A stretch of 32,964 nucleotides of DNA from Aggregatilineales bacterium (lineage in GTDB: Bacteria; Chloroflexota; Anaerolineae; Aggregatilineales; Phototrophicaceae): NCBI GenBank assembly GCA_029975765.1, contig JARKOK010000101.1, forward strand, positions 1-32,964, given 5' to 3'. The notes under the pieces were generated by a model, which was given only the letters and a program-made list of their open reading frames with translations, made no database searches and was not told the DNA's origin. Numbering within the stretch: position 1 is the first letter of the stretch; each line of letters opens with the position of its first letter. Positions 12,153 through 29,155 of this stretch are shown here, in pieces. Made by a program: the position numbers and the translations under genes.

Positions 12153-12941
12153 GTGTGGGTGAGTGGAGCAGACCGCGTGAAGTTTGATGAACTCGATGCC
12201 AGGATGCGAGTGTACGAAACGGCGCACGATCACTGCGTGCTGCCGGGGATTCACATGGTGGCGCGGCTGGATGGCCGCAGTTTCACGCGGCTCACCCGCG
12301 AAACGCACCCGTTTGCCGCGCCCTATGACGAACGTTTCCGCGATCTGATGGTGGCGACGGTTGAACACCTGATGAACTGCGGCTTTAACATCATCTACGG
12401 TTACACGCAGAGCGACGAGATTTCGCTGCTGTTTCACCGGGATGACAGCACCTTTGGCCGCAAGCTGCGGAAGATCATCTCGGTGCTGTCTGGCGAGGCC
12501 AGCGCGCAGTTTTCGCTGCGCTTGGGGCAGGCCGCCTGTTTCGACTGCCGGGTGGCGCAGCTTCCGAACAGCGAAACGGTGATTGATTATTTTCGCTGGC
12601 GGCAGGAAGACGCCAATCGCAACGCGCTCAACGGCCACTGTTACTGGACGCTGCGGCGCGATGGCCTGGACGTGGACGCGGCGACGGCAGCCCTCAAACG
12701 TATGTCGGTCGCCGATAAAAATGAGCTGTTATTTCAGCATGGCGTCAACTTCAACGACCTGCCCGACTGGCACAAACGCGGCGTTGGCCTGTACTGGGAA
12801 CTGTACGACAAACCCGGCCTGAACCCTCTGACTGGCGCGGCGGTGGTATCGAAACGCTGGCGCATCACGATTGACGACCACCTGCCGCGTAAGGATGATT
12901 ACGATACGTTTGTGCGGAAAATCATCCGGCGGGCAAATTAG
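12153..12941 (+). CDS. tRNA(His) guanylyltransferase Thg1-like protein (3'-5' polymerase family); start possibly 12177
   Basis: ARLDGRSFTRLT and YTQSDEISLLF metal/palm motifs of the Thg1 family. Confidence 0.92.
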   Translation: MWVSGADRVKFDELDARMRVYETAHDHCVLPGIHMVARLDGRSFTRLTRETHPFAAPYDERFRDLMVATVEHLMNCGFNIIYGYTQSDEISLLFHRDDSTFGRKLRKIISVLSGEASAQFSLRLGQAACFDCRVAQLPNSETVIDYFRWRQEDANRNALNGHCYWTLRRDGLDVDAATAALKRMSVADKNELLFQHGVNFNDLPDWHKRGVGLYWELYDKPGLNPLTGAAVVSKRWRITIDDHLPRKDDYDTFVRKIIRRAN

Positions 12942-14891: not shown

Positions 14892-17800
14892 ATGGATAAG
14901 CTCATCGGCCACCAGGTGCGCGGATACGAAATAAGCGAACAGTTGGGGGGTGGTGGTTACGGCGCGGTGTACCGGGCGTTTCAGCCTGCCGTTGGCCGGG
15001 ATGTAGCGATCAAAGTCATTCTGCCGCAGCACGCCAGCAACCCGGAATTCACCCGCCGGTTCGAGGTGGAAGCGCAGCTTGTCGCGCAGCTTGAACATCC
15101 CCACATCGTGCCGCTGTACGATTACTGGCAGGATGATCACGGCGCTTTTCTGGTGATGCGGCTGGTCAGGGGCGGCAGCCTGCGCGACCGGCTGGCCGTA
15201 CAGGGGCGGCTGGATTTAAAACAGGTGCTGCGGGTATATGACCACATCGGCGCGGCGCTGGATGTGTCTCACGCTGCTGGTGTCATTCACCGGGACATCA
15301 AGCCGGATAACATCCTGCTGGATCAGTACGACAACGCCTACCTGACCGATTTTGGCATCGCCAAAAATCTGAATCTCAACACCCAGCTTACCTTTAACGA
15401 AGACTCCATCATTGGCACACCGGCCTATCTCGCGCCGGAACAGATCCGCAACGAACCGCTGTCGTCGCAGACCGATATCTATTCCTGCGGCCTGATGCTG
15501 TACGAACTGGTCACCGGCAAACAGCCGTTTGACAGCCCCGGCATGGGCATTATTATCAGCCATCTGGAACAGCCCGTCCCCTCGGTGCTGGAGACCGACC
15601 CGGATTTACCGCCCGCCCTGGACGACATCATCCACCGCGCGGCGGCGAAAAAGGCCGCCGACCGCTATGCCAGCGTGACCGACCTGGTGCAGGAACTGCG
15701 CGAAGTCTGCGCCCCGGCTATCGTGCCGATCCTGCCCTACGAGGCGCAGCCGCGCTTCCGTGACCCCAACCGCCACGTTTTTATTGCTTATTCGGCGGGG
15801 GATACCGAGTTTATTCAACGGCTGGTCTACGATCTGGAAAGCGAGGGCATCGCGGTCTGGGCGGACAAGCAGCATTTAAAACCCGGCACACGCGGCTGGG
15901 AAGACTCCCGGCGCGAAGCGATCCGCAGCGCCTACGCGGTGCTGCTGGTCGCCTCGCCGGAAACGCGCCGTTCCAACTATGTGCTGGATGAACTGGCGAT
16001 TGCCGATATGTACGGCTGTCCGGTTTATCCGGTCTGGGCGGCGGGCGACCGCTGGGACAACCTGCTGCCGCCGGATGTCATTACCGCCGAGTACATTGAC
16101 GCGCGCGCCGACCAGTACGACTCGGCTCTGAGAGAACTGGTCATGCTGCTGGGCGTCCCGTCCGCCGTGGATGACGCCGGACGCTATGCCGAGGACGGCG
16201 CGGCGGCGGCTGAGGCGTTTGTGCCGCGCAACCCTTACAAAGGGCTGCGCGCATTCCGGGAAGCTGATCTGGCGGATTTCTTCGGGCGCGGCAGTCTGGT
16301 GAACACGCTGCTGGATACCCTGAATGACCTGTTACAACCCGGTGAAAGCCGGCTGCTGGCCGTGATCGGTCCCAGCGGCAGCGGCAAATCCAGCGTGGTG
16401 ATGGCCGGTCTGCTGCCCGCGCTGCGGCAGGGGCGGCTGCCCGACAGCGACCGCTGGACGCTGCTGCCGCCGATGGTGCCCGGCGCGCGGCCACTGGAAA
16501 ATCTGGCGCTGGCGCTGGCCGGCGTGCTGCCGACCAAAAGCACGCTGGCGCTGGAAGACGACCTGCGCAGCCCGTCGGCGCGCGGGCTGCACCTGCTGGC
16601 GCGGCAGGCGGTTGACCGCCAGAATTCGCGGCTGGTGCTGTACGTGGATCAGTTCGAGGAACTGTTTACCCAGACCGATGATGAAGCCGAACGGCAGCAG
16701 TTCATCAATCTGCTGCTGACCGCCGCCAGCGAACCGGGCGGGCCGGTAGTAGTGCTGCTCACGCTGCGCGCCGATTTTTACGACCGCCCGATGAATTATC
16801 CCGAACTGGGGCGGCTGATCGAACGCAACAGCAAGGCCGTTCTGCCCCTGTCGCTGGCGGAACTGTACAGCGTCATCCAGAAACCGGCGACCCTGCCCGA
16901 TGTGCGGCTGCAATTCGATACCGGGCTGGTGGCGGAACTGGTGTTTGAAGTACGCGGGCAGCCCGGCGGCCTGCCGCTGCTGCAATTCACGCTCGACCAG
17001 TTGTTTGAACGGCGCAGCGGCCTGCGGCTGACCAACGCCGCCTACGAAGACATCGGCGGGGTGCGCGGCGCGCTGGCAAAACACACCGAAGCAACCTATG
17101 AACGCCTGCCCTCGGACGAACACCGGCGCATGGTGCGGGGGTTGTTCCTGCGGCTGATCGAACCCGGCACGTCCGAGCAGGATACCACCCGCCGGCGCGC
17201 GCCGCGCAGCGAGCTGGTGCTGGCAGACGACCGGCAGAACCGCATCATGGATGACGTGGTGAACGCGTTCGTGACCGCCCGCCTGCTGCTGGCCGACCAG
17301 TCCAAAGGTATCACCACGATTGAACTCAGCCATGAGGCGCTGATCCGCGAATGGCCGCGCCTGAATGAATGGCTGGTGGAAGCGCGGGCGGATATTTTTA
17401 CCCAGCAGAACATCAGCGCGGATACCGCCGCCTGGATCACACGCGGACGGCGCGCCGACGACGACGGCCTGTATCGCGGGATGCTGCTGGAAGACGCGCA
17501 GAACTGGGCGGCGCGCAACCTGCCCAGCAGCGACGAAATGGCCTTCATCCAGGCGTCGGCGCAGGCCCAGGCGGCGCGGCAGGCGCGGGATGCCGCGATT
17601 GCCCGGCGGGTGCAGAATTTCCGGCGGGCGGCGGCGCTGCTGGGGGTGATGAGCGCCGTTGCGATCATCGCCTTCATCGGCGCGGTGGTGCAGGTTGGCG
17701 GGGCGCAGTCGCAGCTTGGCACGGCCACCGTCGCGCAGGGGCTGGCGATCATCTCCCAGAGTACGGCAGTCGCCCAGGTGGACGCCGCGCAGACCGATGT

Positions 17801-20800
17801 GGCCGATGTCGGACAAACGCTGACGCCGATCAGCCAGATATTAGCCGTCGCGCAGACCGATGTCGCCGGCGTCGCGCCAACGGTGCAGGCCGCCAACCAG
17901 GCCGTCGGTGACGCGCGCACCCAGGTCGCCGGCGCGGAAGTCATCCTCACCCGCGTACCGCAGACGCTCACGCCGATTGGCGCGACCCTGGTCGCGGCGG
18001 AAACCGGCGTTGCGGCGGTTGGGCCAACCGTCAACGCCGCGAACTTCGCGGCGGATACGGCGCGGACGGAAGTGGCTCACGCCGGGCTGACGCTGACCCC
18101 CATTCCACGAACCCTCACCCCCATCGCCGGGACGCTGGCCGCCGCCGAACAGCAGGTCGCCGGGGTGCAGCCTACGCTCAACGCGGCGAATACGGAAATC
18201 GCCGGTATCGCGCCCACCGTGCAGGCAGCGAATCAGGCCGCCGACATCGCCCGCACGCAGGCCGCCGACGCCGCGCAAACCCTGACGCCTGTCCCGCAGA
18301 CGCTGACGCCGATCAGCCAGACGCTGGTCGCCGCCGAACAGCAGATCGCGGGGGTGCAGCCCACGCTGGCTTCGGCGCAGACGCAGGTGGCCGGCATCCA
18401 GCCGACGGTCAACGCGGCGAACTTCGCGGCGGATACAGCGCGCACCGCGGTTGCCGATACCGGCCTGACGCTGACACCGATTCCGCTCACGCTCACGCCG
18501 ATTGGCGGCACGCTGGCGGCGGCGGAAACGCAGGTCGCCGGGGTGCAGCCCACCGTACAGGCGGCGGATACCCAGGTCGCGGCCATTCAGCCGACGGTGC
18601 AGGCCGCGAATCAGGCCGCCGACATCGCCCGCACGCAGGTCGCTGATGCCGGTCTGACGCTGACGCCCATCCCGCTCACGCTCACGCCGATTGGCGGCAC
18701 GCTGGCAGCAGCGGAAACGCAGGTCGCCGGCGTGCAGCCCACCGTGCAGGCCGCGAACTTCGCAGCGGATACGGCGCGCACCGCCGTTGCCGATACCGGG
18801 CTGACGCTGACCCCGATTCCGCTCACGCTCACGCCAATTGGCGGCACGTTAGCGGCAGCGGAAACGCAGGTCGCCGGCGTCCAGCCGACGGTCAATGCTG
18901 CCGGGACCGAAGTCGCGGCGGTGCAGCCGACGGTGCGGGCCGCGAATCAGGTGGCGGATACGGCGCGCACCGCCGTTGCCGACGCCGGGGAAACCCTGAC
19001 TCCGATTGGCGGCACGTTAGCGGCGGCGGAAACGCAGGTGGCGGGCGTGCAGCCCACCGTGCAGGCGGCTGGCACGGAAGTCGCCGCTGTGCGACCGACG
19101 GTGCAGGCCGCGAACCGCGCCGCCGACGCGGCCCGGACCGAAGTGGCGAATGCTGGTCAGACGCTGACGCCCATCCCACAAACCCTGACTCCGATTGGCG
19201 GCACGCTGGTCGCCGCCGAAACGCAGGTGGCGGGCGTGCAGCCCACTGTCCAGGCCGCCGGTACGGCAGTCGCGGCGGTGGAACCCACCGTCAACAGCGC
19301 CAGCACGCAGGTCGCCGCCGCCGGGGCGGCGCTCACCCCGCTGGCAAGCACGCTGGTCGCGGCGAATACGCTGGCTGCCGAAAACGCCAGTCAGGCGCTC
19401 AGCCAATCGCTGGCGGTGAACGCGGAACAGGCGGTCAGCAACGAAAACTACGATCTGGCGCTGGTGCTGGCGCTCGAATCCCTGCGCGCCAACCCGGAAC
19501 TGGTGCAGTCGCAGCGCCTTCTCAGCCAGTTGGTCTATGCCAGCGCGCGTTTTAGCTTCGACCAGACGCCGCTGGCAAAACTCAGCCCCGATGGCCGCAC
19601 GCTGGTAACGGTCAGCGGCGCGGCAGTAACGCTGTGGGACATCGGCACGCGGACAACCCGGCTGGCCTTCACCGCCAGCAGTCCGATTAACACACTCGAC
19701 CTCAGCCCGGATGGCACGCGCCTGGTGACCGGCGCCGCCGACGGTAAGCTGGCGCTGTGGGATATGGCCTCCGGTCAGATACTGCGGGAACTGGCGGGGC
19801 ATACGGGCGCGGTGAACGCGGTGCAGTTCAGCCCGGACGGCGGCTCGATCCTCTCCGGTGGTGATGACAACGTGAACATCATCTGGTCGGCGGCTGATGG
19901 GGCGGAACGCTCGCGGTACTCATTGATAACAGGCCGCCAGATCATCCGGGTGCAGTACGATGTGGGCGGGCAGAGTTTCTGGTCGTGGGAGCGCGCCAAT
20001 CAGGAAGTGGTGCAGGTGTACTGGCTGGTGGGACGCAACGCCCCGCGCTGGAGTTCCGCCGACCCGATTTTTGACGCCTTCGACCCGCGCAACCGGCGTT
20101 ACGCCTTCAGCCAGACCGACCGCGCGCTGGTCATCTGGGATGGGCTGGCGCTGAACAAGGTGCGCGAATTTCAGGACAGCACGGTCAGCGGCCTGACGCT
20201 CACCGCGCGCAGCTTCAGCCCGGCTGGCAGTCTGGTGCTGGCCGCCTACCGCGTTCCCGGCACGGCAGCCAACCGCGTCGTGGCGTGGGATTTCAGCACC
20301 AGCACGGTGCAGGCCGCGTTCGAGATTCAGAACGACAGCAGCATCAACGCGATTGCCTACAGCCACAACGGCTCGCTGGCGGCGCTGGCCGTTGGCCGAG
20401 CCATCGCCCTGTATGATATGGCGAATTTCCGCGAATTACAGCGTTTCGCGGCGCATACCGATCTGATTTCGCGGCTGGAGTTTGACCCGACCGGACAGTA
20501 TTTACTGTCGTTTTCCAGCGATGGCAACGCGCGGGTGTGGGATGTCACCGGCGGCGACCCGGCGGAAGCCAACCGGATCATCGCCCGAACCCAGAATAAC
20601 CGCATCGCGTTCCCCGGTTACAGCCCGGACGGGCAGACGGCGTTCGGCGTGCTGCGGGTCAGCCTCTTTGCCTGGAACACCACCACCGGCCAGCAGGTCA
20701 ACCGGATTGACATCGGCGGTGACATCCTCGGCGCGGCCTACAGCGCCACCCAGCCTTATGCGCTCACCATTCTTGCCAACAGCGCCGCGCTGTGGGATTT

Positions 20801-21635
20801 GAGCAAACCGCCGAATCAGGCGTTCGTGCGGTACTTCGGCGGCCAGAATGATGTCTTCAAGGGGACGGTGGACAGGGGCATTGGCCTGAACGCCATCGCC
20901 GCCTTCAGCCCGGATGGGCGCTATCTGGTGACGGACAGCCGCACCTTATCGCTGCGGGACATCACCACCAACGGGCGGCTGATGGACTTTGATCGTTCGC
21001 TGATTCCGTCCGGCAGCGGGCTGGTCAGCCTGGCGGTTTCGCCGGATAACCGCTACCTGCTGGGCGCTTACGCCCAGTCGTATGCCCCCGGCACGCCGCA
21101 TGACCCTAACGAACCTGCCGGCGGGGTTATCGTCTGGGATATCAGCACCGGACAGGCGCTGCGCCAGTTCGGTTCGCCGGAACACAACCGCCGTATCAAC
21201 CATGTTACCATCAGCCCGGACAGCCGGTTAGCCCTGACAGCTTCCGGCGACGGCACGCTCATCATCTGGGACATCGAAACCGGTCGCTTACAGCGGCGGC
21301 TGGCCGGGCATCGCGCCGGGGTTAATCTGGCCTATTTCCTGCCGGACGGCCAGTATGCTGTATCCGCGTCGGACGATACGACGCTGGTCCTGTGGAATGT
21401 GGTATCCGGCCAACTGCTGCGCCGCTTCTACAGCCACACCGCGCCGGTCACGGGTCTGGCTGTCCGGTCGGATGGTACGGGTTTCATTTCCAGCACGGGC
21501 GACGATCAGATCATCGTCTGGGAACTGGAGTCGGTAGAACAGACGATCAACTGGACGCTCCAGAATCGTTTCGTCCGCATCCTGACCTGCGAGGAAGGGC
21601 GGCAGTTCAACCTTGACCGCTTCTGCTCGACGTAA
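14892..21635 (+). CDS. Multidomain STK-TIR-nSTAND-TM-heptad stalk-WD40 receptor-like protein, 2247 aa
   Basis: Kinase LGGGGYGAVYRA/VAIKVI/HRDIKPDNILL/LTDFGIAK/GTPAYLAPEQ; TIR RHVFIAYSAGDTEFIQRLVYDLESEGIAVWAD...SNYVLDELAIA from about aa 294; nSTAND NPYKGLRAF from about aa 447 with GPSGSGKSS and LVLYVDQFEELF; TM about aa 913-935; heptad repeats; WD40 from about aa 1559. Confidence 0.93.
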   Translation: MDKLIGHQVRGYEISEQLGGGGYGAVYRAFQPAVGRDVAIKVILPQHASNPEFTRRFEVEAQLVAQLEHPHIVPLYDYWQDDHGAFLVMRLVRGGSLRDRLAVQGRLDLKQVLRVYDHIGAALDVSHAAGVIHRDIKPDNILLDQYDNAYLTDFGIAKNLNLNTQLTFNEDSIIGTPAYLAPEQIRNEPLSSQTDIYSCGLMLYELVTGKQPFDSPGMGIIISHLEQPVPSVLETDPDLPPALDDIIHRAAAKKAADRYASVTDLVQELREVCAPAIVPILPYEAQPRFRDPNRHVFIAYSAGDTEFIQRLVYDLESEGIAVWADKQHLKPGTRGWEDSRREAIRSAYAVLLVASPETRRSNYVLDELAIADMYGCPVYPVWAAGDRWDNLLPPDVITAEYIDARADQYDSALRELVMLLGVPSAVDDAGRYAEDGAAAAEAFVPRNPYKGLRAFREADLADFFGRGSLVNTLLDTLNDLLQPGESRLLAVIGPSGSGKSSVVMAGLLPALRQGRLPDSDRWTLLPPMVPGARPLENLALALAGVLPTKSTLALEDDLRSPSARGLHLLARQAVDRQNSRLVLYVDQFEELFTQTDDEAERQQFINLLLTAASEPGGPVVVLLTLRADFYDRPMNYPELGRLIERNSKAVLPLSLAELYSVIQKPATLPDVRLQFDTGLVAELVFEVRGQPGGLPLLQFTLDQLFERRSGLRLTNAAYEDIGGVRGALAKHTEATYERLPSDEHRRMVRGLFLRLIEPGTSEQDTTRRRAPRSELVLADDRQNRIMDDVVNAFVTARLLLADQSKGITTIELSHEALIREWPRLNEWLVEARADIFTQQNISADTAAWITRGRRADDDGLYRGMLLEDAQNWAARNLPSSDEMAFIQASAQAQAARQARDAAIARRVQNFRRAAALLGVMSAVAIIAFIGAVVQVGGAQSQLGTATVAQGLAIISQSTAVAQVDAAQTDVADVGQTLTPISQILAVAQTDVAGVAPTVQAANQAVGDARTQVAGAEVILTRVPQTLTPIGATLVAAETGVAAVGPTVNAANFAADTARTEVAHAGLTLTPIPRTLTPIAGTLAAAEQQVAGVQPTLNAANTEIAGIAPTVQAANQAADIARTQAADAAQTLTPVPQTLTPISQTLVAAEQQIAGVQPTLASAQTQVAGIQPTVNAANFAADTARTAVADTGLTLTPIPLTLTPIGGTLAAAETQVAGVQPTVQAADTQVAAIQPTVQAANQAADIARTQVADAGLTLTPIPLTLTPIGGTLAAAETQVAGVQPTVQAANFAADTARTAVADTGLTLTPIPLTLTPIGGTLAAAETQVAGVQPTVNAAGTEVAAVQPTVRAANQVADTARTAVADAGETLTPIGGTLAAAETQVAGVQPTVQAAGTEVAAVRPTVQAANRAADAARTEVANAGQTLTPIPQTLTPIGGTLVAAETQVAGVQPTVQAAGTAVAAVEPTVNSASTQVAAAGAALTPLASTLVAANTLAAENASQALSQSLAVNAEQAVSNENYDLALVLALESLRANPELVQSQRLLSQLVYASARFSFDQTPLAKLSPDGRTLVTVSGAAVTLWDIGTRTTRLAFTASSPINTLDLSPDGTRLVTGAADGKLALWDMASGQILRELAGHTGAVNAVQFSPDGGSILSGGDDNVNIIWSAADGAERSRYSLITGRQIIRVQYDVGGQSFWSWERANQEVVQVYWLVGRNAPRWSSADPIFDAFDPRNRRYAFSQTDRALVIWDGLALNKVREFQDSTVSGLTLTARSFSPAGSLVLAAYRVPGTAANRVVAWDFSTSTVQAAFEIQNDSSINAIAYSHNGSLAALAVGRAIALYDMANFRELQRFAAHTDLISRLEFDPTGQYLLSFSSDGNARVWDVTGGDPAEANRIIARTQNNRIAFPGYSPDGQTAFGVLRVSLFAWNTTTGQQVNRIDIGGDILGAAYSATQPYALTILANSAALWDLSKPPNQAFVRYFGGQNDVFKGTVDRGIGLNAIAAFSPDGRYLVTDSRTLSLRDITTNGRLMDFDRSLIPSGSGLVSLAVSPDNRYLLGAYAQSYAPGTPHDPNEPAGGVIVWDISTGQALRQFGSPEHNRRINHVTISPDSRLALTASGDGTLIIWDIETGRLQRRLAGHRAGVNLAYFLPDGQYAVSASDDTTLVLWNVVSGQLLRRFYSHTAPVTGLAVRSDGTGFISSTGDDQIIVWELESVEQTINWTLQNRFVRILTCEEGRQFNLDRFCST
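17730..19370 (+). repeat. Intragenic heptad-phased (21-nt) repeat array, higher-order units 147/168/189 bp
   Basis: Landmark IGG/IGA/ISQ codons at 17829, 17976, 18123, 18312, 18501, 18690, 18837, 19005, 19194: all spacings are multiples of 21 nt. Confidence 0.9.
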
Positions 21636-25994: not shown

Positions 25995-27608
25995 TTAACG
26001 ACTGCGCCGCCCGCGTTTGGGTTTGTCGTAGTCGGTGTAATCGTCGTCGTCCGGCACTTCTTCCAGTTCGCCGTCTTCGGTCAGGCGCACGCGCCGGTCA
26101 CGTTTGGGCTTTTCGTCATAGTACGCGCCCAATTTACGCTGGCGTTCGCGTTCCAGTTCTTCCTGCACCATCCGTTCACGTTTTTCAGCACCTGCGCCGT
26201 ACTTGTTGTAATAATCCATGAAGTTCGCCACGACGCCGATTCCCCAGAAGAACGTTACAATCGCCGGCCAGGGGAAGTCCAGCGCCTCAAACGAAATCTG
26301 CCCGTTGGACAGCATCGAGATGAACAAATCCTGGGAATTGGCCCACATGCCCCAGAACACCAACTGCATCACAATATAAATGGTGACGTGGATGATCAGG
26401 CCGGTGCGTTCTTCGTACCGCTTCTGAATACGCTTGCGGATACGTTCCTCATCGCTGACCGGTTTTTTGCTCTCGTCCACCGCTTCCTGGATCGAACGCG
26501 CGATTTCGGCCATCACACCGCCGCCGCGTTTCACACCTTCTTCAATCTTCCGCCCTACCTCATCCCATTTGACGTTGCCCATATCAAGGCGCGCTTCGAT
26601 CCGGGGCGGAACGGGCGGCCTGGGTGGAACCGGCGCGGGGATGGACACGTACCGTCCGGCTTTCGCCGGGGTGTTGGCTGGCCGCGCCTGGGGATCGCTC
26701 AGCGTGGGCGAATCGTCCATCAGGTGTGACGGCGCTTCAGCCTGCGTCCAGACCTGCGCGGTCGGCAGCGCCCGCAGGCCGGACTCGGTGAGCGCCTGCC
26801 GGAAATCGGCCATCAGCTCATTGGCCGAGGCGTACCGTTCGGCGGGGTCTTTTGCCAGCGCCTTCACCAGCACCCGCTCGACCGCCGGGGGGATGTTCGG
26901 GTTCAGGCTGCTGGGCGCGGGCAGAGGACTGTAAATGTGGTCATGAACAATGGCATAGGGGGTGTCGGCATTAAACGGCACGCGCCCTACCACCAGTTCG
27001 TACAGAATCACGCCAAAGGAATAAACATCCGTGCGCGCGTCCAGATTACGCTCGCCGCGCGCCTGCTCCGGCGAAATGTACTGCGGCGTGCCTAAAATCA
27101 TGTCCTGGCTCATCGTGCTTTCGCCCGCCTGGGCGATCCGCGCCAGTCCAAAGTCCGTCAGGTAGGGCGTACCCTGAGCGTCCATCACGATATTCGAGGG
27201 TTTAATGTCGCGGTGCAGCACCCCGCGCTGGTGAGCATAGGTCAGCGCATCGGCAATAGGTGTCATAATCTGCACCACCTGATCGAGCGGCAGCGGCCCA
27301 TCGGCCAGCAGCCCCTTCAGCGTGCGCCCTTCGATGTGCTTCATGACCAGATACGGCTGGCCGTCAGTTTCGGCAAAGTCGTAGACCGGAACGATGTGCG
27401 GATGTTCCAGCCGGGCGACAATCTGCGCCTCGCGCTCGAAGCGGCTGTGAAAGTTCGGGTCTTGCAGAAAAGCCGCGTGCATCACCTTCACGGCCACGTA
27501 GCGGTCAAGTCTGGCGTGGTGTGCCCGGTAAACAGTCGCCATTCCACCCTGACCGATCAGCCCCACGATTTGATACGGGCCGAGCATCTGCCCTTCGTAC
27601 AGCGCCAT
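25995..27608 (-). CDS. Ser/Thr protein kinase (PknB-like) with C-terminal 2TM domain and KPKR...RLTxDGE tail
   Basis: IGQGGMATVYRAHH, VAVKVM, HRDIKPSNIVMD, LTDFGLAR, GTPQYISPEQ; C-term RKRIQKRYEERTGLIIHVTIYIVMQLVFWGMW...DEKPKRDRRVRLTEDGELEEVPDDDD. Start at MALYEGQMLG preferred over 27728. Confidence 0.95.
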   Translation of the reverse strand: MALYEGQMLGPYQIVGLIGQGGMATVYRAHHARLDRYVAVKVMHAAFLQDPNFHSRFEREAQIVARLEHPHIVPVYDFAETDGQPYLVMKHIEGRTLKGLLADGPLPLDQVVQIMTPIADALTYAHQRGVLHRDIKPSNIVMDAQGTPYLTDFGLARIAQAGESTMSQDMILGTPQYISPEQARGERNLDARTDVYSFGVILYELVVGRVPFNADTPYAIVHDHIYSPLPAPSSLNPNIPPAVERVLVKALAKDPAERYASANELMADFRQALTESGLRALPTAQVWTQAEAPSHLMDDSPTLSDPQARPANTPAKAGRYVSIPAPVPPRPPVPPRIEARLDMGNVKWDEVGRKIEEGVKRGGGVMAEIARSIQEAVDESKKPVSDEERIRKRIQKRYEERTGLIIHVTIYIVMQLVFWGMWANSQDLFISMLSNGQISFEALDFPWPAIVTFFWGIGVVANFMDYYNKYGAGAEKRERMVQEELERERQRKLGAYYDEKPKRDRRVRLTEDGELEEVPDDDDYTDYDKPKRGRRSR

Positions 27609-27684
27609 CAGCGCCCCCTTGTCTCTGCCTGCTGTCTGAATTATAGACGACCTGTGGCGGGGGTTCAATTCAAAGTCCGGGCGG

Positions 27685-28194
27685 TTAAGCGCGCTTCTGC
27701 TCGCCATCGGTGTCCCATTCGTCGTCAATCACGTCCAGCACTTCGCCATCGTCCGACAGGCGCACGTACCGGTCGCGTTTGGGTTTCTCGGCGCTGTCGG
27801 CCTGCCCCTGCTCGCGCTCGATGGCGCGTTCAATCGCGCGGTCGGTCGTTTCGGCAAACACCACCTGCAAGCCATGCACCACCAGCACCAGCGCCCAGAC
27901 GCCGCCCAGCAGCGCCAGGGCCGTGGGCGGCACACGCAGCAGCAGCAGACCCACCGTGATGAACAGGAACATCACAATATGCGCGGCCAGTTCATACCGC
28001 CGCCGGTAGCGCCGTTCGATGCGGGCGCGCAGGCTCTCAAAATCGGCGCTGGCTGGTTCAGCCGCCGCTCCATAACCAGGCATCGCGCGGTGTTTTGCCT
28101 CACGCCGCGTTCGCGTCAATGCCAGCGCCATCAGCAGGCCGCCAATGGCAACGACGGTTATCAGTAAAATTTCGGCTATGCCAATTACTAACAA
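27685..28194 (-). CDS. Small membrane protein paralog with KPKR...RLSxDGE tail
   Basis: RARIERRYRRRYELAAHIVMFLFITVGLLLL...AEKPKRDRYVRLSDDGEVLDVIDDEWD; extra N-terminal TM. Confidence 0.82.
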   Translation of the reverse strand: MLVIGIAEILLITVVAIGGLLMALALTRTRREAKHRAMPGYGAAAEPASADFESLRARIERRYRRRYELAAHIVMFLFITVGLLLLRVPPTALALLGGVWALVLVVHGLQVVFAETTDRAIERAIEREQGQADSAEKPKRDRYVRLSDDGEVLDVIDDEWDTDGEQKRA

Positions 28195-28212
28195 GGCTGC
28201 CTCCCGGAAATC

Positions 28213-28683
28213 TCATCCCTGCCGCTGGCGGTGTCGGGCTTCACCGGCATACTCGTCATCCACGATGTCCAGCAGTTCGCCCTCATCGGACAGACGCAGT
28301 GTGCCGCGTTTTGACTTTTCCAGCGGTTCGTCCAGCAGTTCATCGTCCAGCCCCAGCCGCGCGTATTCGATTTCGCGCACCATCAGCCGCTTGCGATGCC
28401 GGTCGCTCCAGCCTTTGGAACTGAGCGAAAAGGCCGACAGCCCGTGCATGAACAATCCGGTCGCCCAGCCGATGGACAGCATAATCAACATGCCGAGGGT
28501 ATCGTCCGACAGGAAAAAGCTGGAGGAAGTATTCGGCACCAGCACCCACGCCAGCAGCATGAAGATAAAAAAGATCAGGCTGTTAGCCATAAACAGCGCC
28601 ATCTGTCCCCGGCGGCGTTCCTGCTGAAGTTCCACCTCGACCCGGCGACGGATCGCGGCATAGTCCAGATGATCATTTTGCAT
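28213..28683 (-). CDS. Small membrane protein paralog with KSKR...RLSxEGE tail
   Basis: MQNDHLDYAAIRRRVEVELQQERRRGQMALFM...LEKSKRGTLRLSDEGELLDIVDDEYA; start at 28683 by alignment with the upstream paralog. Confidence 0.82.
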   Translation of the reverse strand: MQNDHLDYAAIRRRVEVELQQERRRGQMALFMANSLIFFIFMLLAWVLVPNTSSSFFLSDDTLGMLIMLSIGWATGLFMHGLSAFSLSSKGWSDRHRKRLMVREIEYARLGLDDELLDEPLEKSKRGTLRLSDEGELLDIVDDEYAGEARHRQRQG

Positions 28684-28694
28684 GGCGTTCCTCA
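28621..28694. repeat. Tandem-duplicated gene-junction segment, copy 1 (partner 29093-29166)
   Basis: 74-bp segment near-identical to 29093-29166, spanning a stop/start overlap in both cases. Confidence 0.75.
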
Positions 28695-29155
28695 CGTTTC
28701 GATTTGTCGTCCGGCCAGCTGTCTTCGATAATATCCAGCAGTTCCCCTTCATCGGTCAGGCGCAGTCTGCCGCTGGCCGGGGATGGATTCTGGTGCGTTA
28801 GCCGCTCCGCCAGACCGGCATCCTGGTCGAGCCGCAGATCTTCGATGATCTGGACCGTCAGCCGCCGGCGCATATTCCGTGCCCAGCCGGGCGAATTGAT
28901 GACGAAGGTGGACAGCCCGTGAAACACCAGCGCCACGATCCAGCCGGCCGCCAGGAAATAAACGACCGACAGCACGCTGTCCCGATTAACAAAATCGGTG
29001 GCATCAGGCAGCGCCAGCAGCAGCATGACCACAAACAGCACAAAGATAAAACCACTCAGCAGGAACAAGACCATCTGGCGCTGGAAACGTTTCTGCTGGA
29101 GTTCCACTTCGACGCGGCGGCGGATCGCGGCATAGTCCAGGTCATCGTTGTACAT
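28673..29155 (-). CDS. Small membrane protein paralog with degenerate RLTxEGE tail
   Basis: MYNDDLDYAAIRRRVEVELQQKRFQRQMVLFLL...SGRLRLTDEGELLDIIEDSWPDD. Confidence 0.82.
   Translation of the reverse strand: MYNDDLDYAAIRRRVEVELQQKRFQRQMVLFLLSGFIFVLFVVMLLLALPDATDFVNRDSVLSVVYFLAAGWIVALVFHGLSTFVINSPGWARNMRRRLTVQIIEDLRLDQDAGLAERLTHQNPSPASGRLRLTDEGELLDIIEDSWPDDKSKREERHAK

What the first reader, a model, noticed from the sequence alone, without database searches (positions are those of the whole stretch)
14892..21635. Single-chain STK-TIR-nSTAND-TM-stalk-WD40 protein: a candidate transmembrane STAND receptor with two effector domains
Seen: an apparently active kinase (HRD, DFG, APE and invariant Lys), a TIR domain keeping a Glu in a DEL context (catalytic Glu position of NADase TIRs), an nSTAND module with Walker A GPSGSGKSS and Walker B LVLYVDQFEELF, one TM, then repeats and WD40. 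Established: TIR and STAND modules are common in bacterial conflict and antiphage systems, and kinase-WD40 proteins are known in Chloroflexota and Actinobacteria. Inference: combining kinase and TIR effectors on one STAND switch with a membrane-separated propeller is unusual. I cannot tell whether this exact architecture has been described.
Basis: partly seen in the sequence, partly recalled or inferred. Interest (0 to 1): 0.78.

Follow-up and report, generated by a model that had tools for sequence, protein, structure and literature searches.

The report
Two-effector membrane STAND receptor protein
This bacterial gene encodes one long membrane protein that most likely senses something outside the cell with a propeller-shaped head and switches on two enzymes inside, a protein kinase and an NAD-destroying TIR domain; its parts belong to two common sister receptor families, and only their fusion into one chain appears to be new.

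Summary
One uninterrupted 2247-aa frame (14892-21635 +) encodes Ser/Thr kinase, TIR, nSTAND1 NTPase, one transmembrane helix, a ~520-aa repeat stalk and about two WD40 propellers. Kinase, TIR and P-loop catalytic residues are intact and invariant in relatives. AlphaFold gives a confident TIR-nSTAND model whose best PDB match is the plant TIR-NLR RPP1. The genome is a Chloroflexota (Anaerolineae) MAG. Two sister receptor families are common there: STK-nSTAND1-TM-WD40 (three more in this genome) and TIR-nSTAND1-TM-WD40. The window's nSTAND sits inside the TIR clade (100/99). Its kinase clusters with the STK-nSTAND kinases. It is therefore a TIR receptor that gained the sister family's kinase. 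No second kinase-TIR-nSTAND1 protein appeared in any whole-genome search, including all 154 genomes held for the order. Dual N-terminal effectors are not unique, because a relative carries CHAT-TIR-nSTAND1-TM-WD40. The neighbourhood is metabolic, not a defence island. Most likely role: an outward-looking STAND receptor driving a conflict or cell-suicide response. Topology is well supported; ligand and function are inferred. Verdict: new variant of a known kind.

The parts
14892..21635 (+). Whole gene: STK-TIR-nSTAND1-TM-stalk-WD40 protein, 2247 aa
14925..15668 (+). Ser/Thr protein kinase domain (Pkinase, aa 12-259) with K41, HRD133-135, DFG153-155, APE181-183
15777..16142 (+). TIR domain (TIR_2, aa 296-417)
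15990..15992 (+). Codon of Glu367, aligned with the catalytic Glu of AbTIR, SARM1 and Cat1
16233..17456 (+). nSTAND1 NTPase module (aa 448-855)
16368..16394 (+). Walker A GPSGSGKSS (aa 493-501)
16632..16667 (+). Walker B LVLYVDQFEELF (aa 581-592)
17628..17696 (+). Single transmembrane helix (aa ~913-935), preceded by a basic segment: N-in/C-out
17724..19301 (+). Ala/Thr/Val/Gln/Pro-rich stalk (aa ~945-1470), 63-aa repeats clearest at 18023-18765
19551..21524 (+). WD40 ectodomain (aa ~1554-2211), strand count fits two propellers
21588..21626 (+). C-terminal Cys pair (C2233, C2245), the only Cys after the TM, in a family-conserved L-x-C-x-E-R...C motif

Best explanation
The gene encodes a single-pass (N-in/C-out) STAND receptor. 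A double WD40 propeller on a long stalk is held outside the cell, and an nSTAND1 NTPase inside works as an oligomerisation switch. Ligand binding outside would let the NTPase exchange nucleotide and assemble. That would bring two sets of N-terminal enzymes together: the TIR, expected to cleave NAD+, and the kinase, expected to trans-phosphorylate itself, the TIR/NTPase or downstream targets. The likely outcome is a dormancy or suicide-type conflict response. By descent it is a TIR-nSTAND1-TM-stalk-WD40 receptor that gained the kinase of the sister STK-nSTAND1-TM-WD40 family. Shown here: domain order, intact catalytic residues, conserved TM and charge pattern, and the mixed descent. Inferred: catalytic activity, oligomerisation, ligand, and the conflict role.
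For: Domains and catalytic residues. Fold: model pLDDT 89.4, pTM 0.85; best PDB matches are the RPP1 TIR-NLR tetramer (2.9e-12), with APAF-1 and CED-4 among the hits. WD40 model pLDDT 83.8; matches a repetitive propeller and APAF-1. Topology: TM in the same place in 27/27 long relatives, mean 7.1 K+R before against 2.9 after, and an even number of Cys after the TM in 20 of the 24 that have any. Descent: nSTAND tree puts the window in a 15-row TIR clade (100/99), with STK-nSTAND1 a separate 36-row clade (100/99); the kinase falls in a 38-row set (99/94) holding all 35 STK-nSTAND kinases; pre-TM and stalk best match TIR-nSTAND proteins L123 and L125. Conflict link: close relatives carry EAD8 or CHAT, domains of the conflict systems of Kaur et al. 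(PMC8195603; PMC7159879). TIR-nSTAND1 is patchy, listed in at least 27 of 98 family genomes. The closest syntenic relative G399 keeps the upstream genes but lacks this gene.
Against: No defence-island context. The combination is a singleton in the genomes searched, so its joint function is not shown to be under selection; the single kinase and TIR parents may each work alone. No ligand is known. Known antiphage STANDs sense phage proteins inside the cell, whereas this sensor faces out. Topology rests on hydropathy, charge and Cys counts, not experiment. STK-nSTAND1 proteins look nearly universal in the family, which fits ordinary signalling. The kinase tree has many open forks and two long-branched solo kinases fall inside the window's set.
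Confidence: 0.55

Rival explanations
1. It is an ordinary membrane signalling kinase (PknB-like plan: kinase inside, TM, sensor outside). The nSTAND1 regulates the kinase, and the TIR is a protein-binding scaffold or vestigial effector with no role in conflict.
For: The STK-nSTAND1-TM-WD40 family occurs in nearly all genomes of the family, with three TIR-less copies in this genome. The neighbourhood is metabolic. Many TIR domains are scaffolds (established knowledge).
Against: The TIR Glu is invariant in 38/38 relatives and aligns with the NADase Glu. By its nSTAND the protein belongs to the patchy TIR clade that carries EAD8 and CHAT, not to the kinase clade.
Confidence: 0.25
2. It is a recent, non-selected gene fusion: the kinase was joined to a TIR receptor by recombination between sister paralogs and contributes little. 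The working unit is the TIR receptor alone.
For: It is a singleton in the genomes searched. The tree topologies differ between the kinase and nSTAND parts.
Against: The kinase keeps every catalytic residue, and its branch is long (0.71), so the fusion may be old with relatives unsampled. Codon usage is uniform.
Confidence: 0.15
3. It is an assembly artefact joining a kinase gene to a TIR-nSTAND gene.
For: The genome is a fragmented MAG (594 contigs, 6.65% contamination), and each part exists separately.
Against: The two families share no sequence at the kinase-TIR joint on which an assembler could recombine. The join is in frame, with normal linker length and homogeneous codon usage.
Confidence: 0.04

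Closest known systems
nSTAND1 conflict proteins of Kaur et al. 2021 (PMC8195603)
   Same: nSTAND1 core; N-terminal slot filled by TIR, caspase, S/T/Y kinase or EADs, EAD8 included
   Different: There the effectors are listed as alternatives in front of an FGS lectin sensor; here two stand in tandem, and the sensor is a WD40 propeller beyond a membrane helix
APAF-1 / apoptosome
   Same: N-terminal signalling part, STAND switch, double WD40 propeller sensor; fold matches for both halves
   Different: Cytosolic, CARD adaptor instead of enzymes, NB-ARC rather than nSTAND1, no TM or stalk
TEP1 / NWD1 (DUF4062 TIR-like NADase + NACHT + WD40, PMC13174449)
   Same: NADase-type domain before a STAND NTPase, with WD40 repeats in some members
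   Different: DUF4062 TIR-like domain rather than TIR_2, cytosolic or vault-bound, no kinase
Plant TIR-NLR (RPP1)
   Same: TIR + STAND NTPase; best fold match of the TIR-nSTAND model
   Different: LRR sensor, soluble, no kinase
PkwA-type kinase-WD40 proteins and PknB-type membrane kinases
   Same: Kinase + WD40 in one chain (PkwA); kinase inside, TM, sensor outside (PknB)
   Different: No STAND NTPase or TIR there; no PASTA repeats here

Membership tests
nSTAND1 STAND NTPases | nSTAND1 domain above the curated cut-off | tested here: met
   382.8 bits against cut-off 27.1, full model length
nSTAND1 STAND NTPases | Intact Walker A and Walker B | tested here: met
   K499 and D586 invariant in 78/78
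nSTAND1-FGS conflict systems (Kaur 2021) | C-terminal FGS lectin sensor | tested here: not met
   C-terminus is WD40, no FGS hit in the families shown
nSTAND1-FGS conflict systems (Kaur 2021) | Nearby reverse transcriptase (DGR) or EAD partner genes | tested here: not met
   None among the Pfam-scanned window genes; elsewhere in the genome not tested
NADase TIR domains | TIR fold | tested here: met
   TIR_2 7e-18; model pLDDT 89; profile matches Cat1, AbTIR, SARM1 at 1e-10 to 1e-11
NADase TIR domains | Catalytic glutamate | tested here: met
   E367 aligned with the catalytic Glu position of AbTIR and SARM1, 38/38 conserved
NADase TIR domains | NAD+ cleavage | not testable with these tools
   Needs an enzyme assay
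Bacterial Ser/Thr kinases (PknB-type) | Kinase domain with K, HRD, DFG | tested here: met
Bacterial Ser/Thr kinases (PknB-type) | Extracellular PASTA repeats (PASTA kinase equivalog) | tested here: not met
   NF033483 294.8 bits against cut-off 450, kinase part only
Known antiphage systems (PADLOC) | Full-length match to a defence protein | tested here: not met
   The 25 best PADLOC hits all cover the kinase domain only (PD-T4-6, MAD6 and others)
Known antiphage systems (PADLOC) | Location in a defence island | tested here: not met
   Neighbours are metabolic or general genes by Pfam; PADLOC was not run on them
Single-pass N-in/C-out membrane receptors | One TM with positive-inside flank, sensor outside | tested here: met
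   27/27 relatives, K+R 7.1 before and 2.9 after; Cys parity. Prediction only

The most novel reading that the evidence does not exclude
Anaerolineae hold a widespread class of outward-looking, membrane-spanning STAND receptors (inside effector slot, nSTAND1 switch, TM, stalk, extracellular WD40 or other ectodomain): in effect apoptosome-like switches triggered from outside the cell. The window protein is a two-output version in which one external signal drives both an NADase and a kinase, possibly with the kinase setting the threshold of the NADase.
Probability: 0.35. Interest if true: 0.75.

Novelty: new variant of a known kind. Interest (0 to 1): 0.5.

Why it matters
Characterised bacterial STAND immune proteins mostly watch the cytoplasm. 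A common family whose sensor sits outside the membrane while the switch and death-type enzymes sit inside would be a bacterial counterpart of transmembrane immune receptors, and would raise the question of how a STAND oligomer is triggered across a bilayer. The kinase-TIR fusion links phosphorylation signalling and NAD+ depletion on one switch and gives a single-gene handle to test whether one controls the other. It also shows effector capture between sister receptor families.

Tried and rejected
Assembly chimera: unlikely (codon usage uniform, no shared sequence at the joint). Defence island: rejected for this window. First phmmer alignments put the AbTIR catalytic Glu three residues off, opposite V364; the profile alignment from 40 relatives corrects this to E367. 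G400 C269 showed a stop in its TIR hit and was checked for a split upstream kinase: none found. An adjacent kinase gene beside TIR-nSTAND genes (unfused partner) is not a pattern: only 5 of the TIR/nSTAND loci had any separate kinase ORF in the stretch held. The genome-contig scan found only two relatives. Plasmid records gave TIR-nSTAND (Caballeronia, Rhizobium) and kinase-nSTAND (Deinococcus) matches; none of the 450 records covered 80% of the STK-TIR-nSTAND query. Papers holding the terms searched did not describe this exact architecture in the passages read, but the library is incomplete.

Full report
**What is there.** The window carries one uninterrupted frame, 14892..21635 (+), of 2247 aa. 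Pfam gives Pkinase at aa 12-259 (2e-52), nSTAND1 at 448-855 (3.6e-114) and six WD40 stretches. TIR_2 lies at aa 296-417 (7e-18) when the segment is scanned alone. One hydrophobic segment lies at aa ~912-936. It is followed by a stalk rich in Ala, Thr, Val and Gln, with a 189-bp (63-aa) tandem period. The only Cys residues are three before the TM and two at the extreme C-terminus (C2233, C2245).

**Catalytic state.** K41, HRD133, DFG153, APE181, Walker A 493 and Walker B 581 are present. In relatives the kinase Lys, His, Asp, Asn and DFG are invariant in 36/36 rows, the TIR Glu in 38/38, and Walker A Lys and Walker B Asp in 78/78. A profile built from 40 TIR-nSTAND relatives (A1) matches Cat1, AbTIR and SARM1 (1.7e-11 to 8e-10) and aligns E367 with the Glu of AbTIR NYEL, SARM1 HKEI and Cat1 WDEL. 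That these are the catalytic Glu residues (E208 in AbTIR, E642 in SARM1) is from my own knowledge. Activity itself is untested.

**Structure.** The TIR-nSTAND model has mean pLDDT 89.4 and pTM 0.85. Its best PDB matches are the plant TIR-NLR RPP1 tetramer (2.9e-12), with APAF-1 and CED-4 lower in the list. The WD40 region model (pLDDT 83.8, pTM 0.70) starts with a ~45-residue helix and has roughly the strand count of two propellers. It matches a highly repetitive propeller (9.2e-41) and APAF-1 (3.8e-32). Whole-model TM-scores are low because the domain arrangement differs.

**Topology.** All 27 nSTAND1-WD40 relatives longer than 1300 aa have a TM just after the nSTAND. The 25 residues before it hold on average 7.1 K+R and the 25 after it 2.9. 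Of the 24 with any Cys after the TM, 20 have an even number. The alignment of 22 WD40 regions keeps a C-terminal L-x-C-x-E-R...C motif. This fits N-in/C-out with a disulfide-closed ectodomain. It is prediction, not experiment.

**Relatives and descent.** The window is contig C430 of a 594-contig MAG, completeness 95.7%, contamination 6.65%. A same-genus genome (G404) has a contig of the same length and content as a record titled Anaerolineae bacterium (L021/L124). The window genome holds three TIR-less STK-nSTAND1-TM-WD40 paralogs (C262, C403, C67). Such proteins of ~1500-1600 aa are common across the order. TIR-nSTAND1 proteins, many with TM and WD40, are listed in at least 27 of 98 family genomes (my count of listed rows; architectures). 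In a maximum-likelihood tree of 78 nSTAND domains the window lies in a 15-row set that is otherwise all TIR (100/99). The STK-nSTAND1 rows form a separate 36-row set (100/99). In a kinase tree the window's kinase falls in a 38-row set (99/94) with all 35 STK-nSTAND1 kinases and two long-branched solo kinases, apart from the solo kinases of its own genome. The segment before the TM and the stalk best match TIR-nSTAND proteins L123 and L125; the WD40 part matches both families. The simplest history is that a TIR-nSTAND1-TM-stalk-WD40 receptor gained the sister family's kinase.

**How rare is the fusion?** No other kinase-TIR-nSTAND1 chain appeared in the family (98 genomes), the order (154), a 396-genome class sample or a 400-genome phylum sample. 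Each search scored only a few candidates per genome, so misses are possible, and other phyla were reached only through plasmid records. Dual effectors as such are not unique: L054 is CHAT-TIR-nSTAND1-TM-WD40, while L053, L126, L130 and L132 are EAD8-TIR-nSTAND1. Other members swap the sensor: L021 is TIR-nSTAND1-PAS-histidine kinase.

**Surroundings.** Neighbours by Pfam are radA-like, PNPOx, ArsP permease, DUF1980, HNH, a TIM-barrel protein, CoA-binding, MFS, dihydropyrimidinase, a polyketide-cyclase-like protein, Thg1, a nucleotidyltransferase/GHMP protein and GNAT upstream. Downstream are DinB, PIG-L, GAF, a glycosyltransferase, a second kinase and DegV. No defence genes were recognised. 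In the same-genus genome G399 the cyclase-nucleotidyltransferase-GNAT group is kept (72/78/87% identity) but the receptor and DinB are absent, so the gene is accessory.

**Mechanism and confidence.** The best reading is an outward-facing STAND receptor in which ligand binding by the propeller head triggers nSTAND1 assembly. TIR NADase and kinase domains would then be activated by proximity, as in TIR-NLRs and APAF-1. The conflict role rests on the TIR itself, on EAD8 and CHAT in the clade, and on the published rule that this N-terminal slot holds TIR, caspase, kinase or EADs (PMC8195603). The steps from ligand to outcome are inferred. The main rivals are an ordinary signalling kinase with a scaffold TIR, and a neutral fusion.

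**Novelty.** The parts and the plan are known kinds. The kinase+TIR tandem on one nSTAND1 is a new variant, found once. The more general point, a common class of membrane-spanning nSTAND1 receptors with extracellular propellers in Anaerolineae, did not appear in the passages I read. A membrane-associated conflict system (EACC1) is described (PMC7159879), and nSTAND1 sometimes occurs in it (PMC8195603).

Noticed in passing
L054:7611-13391 (+): CHAT (caspase-like)-TIR-nSTAND1-TM-WD40 protein in G270: a second two-effector member of the same clade.
   Followed up: partly
L108:1299-2549 (-): Short EAD8-TIR-TM protein (417 aa) in G415, possibly a membrane TIR effector recruited through EAD8 by EAD8-TIR-nSTAND1 receptors.
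   Followed up: no
L021:7959-10901 (+): TIR-nSTAND1 fused to PAS-HisKA-HATPase: a STAND switch coupled to a histidine kinase module.
   Followed up: no
L132:2561-10040: Cluster of three TIR genes (307 aa, 1075 aa, and an EAD8-TIR-nSTAND1) in G440.
   Followed up: no
window 25998-29155 (-): Second Ser/Thr kinase with a C-terminal 2TM domain (PF13239), followed by two small 2TM proteins: a possible kinase-2TM module.
   Followed up: no
window 12153-12941 (+): Bacterial Thg1-like tRNA(His) guanylyltransferase with both Thg1 and Thg1C domains.
   Followed up: no
L109:3287-5425 (+): 714-aa protein in G440 with more than one TIR-type match (two TIR_2 stretches and a ThsB_TIR match) in one chain.
   Followed up: no
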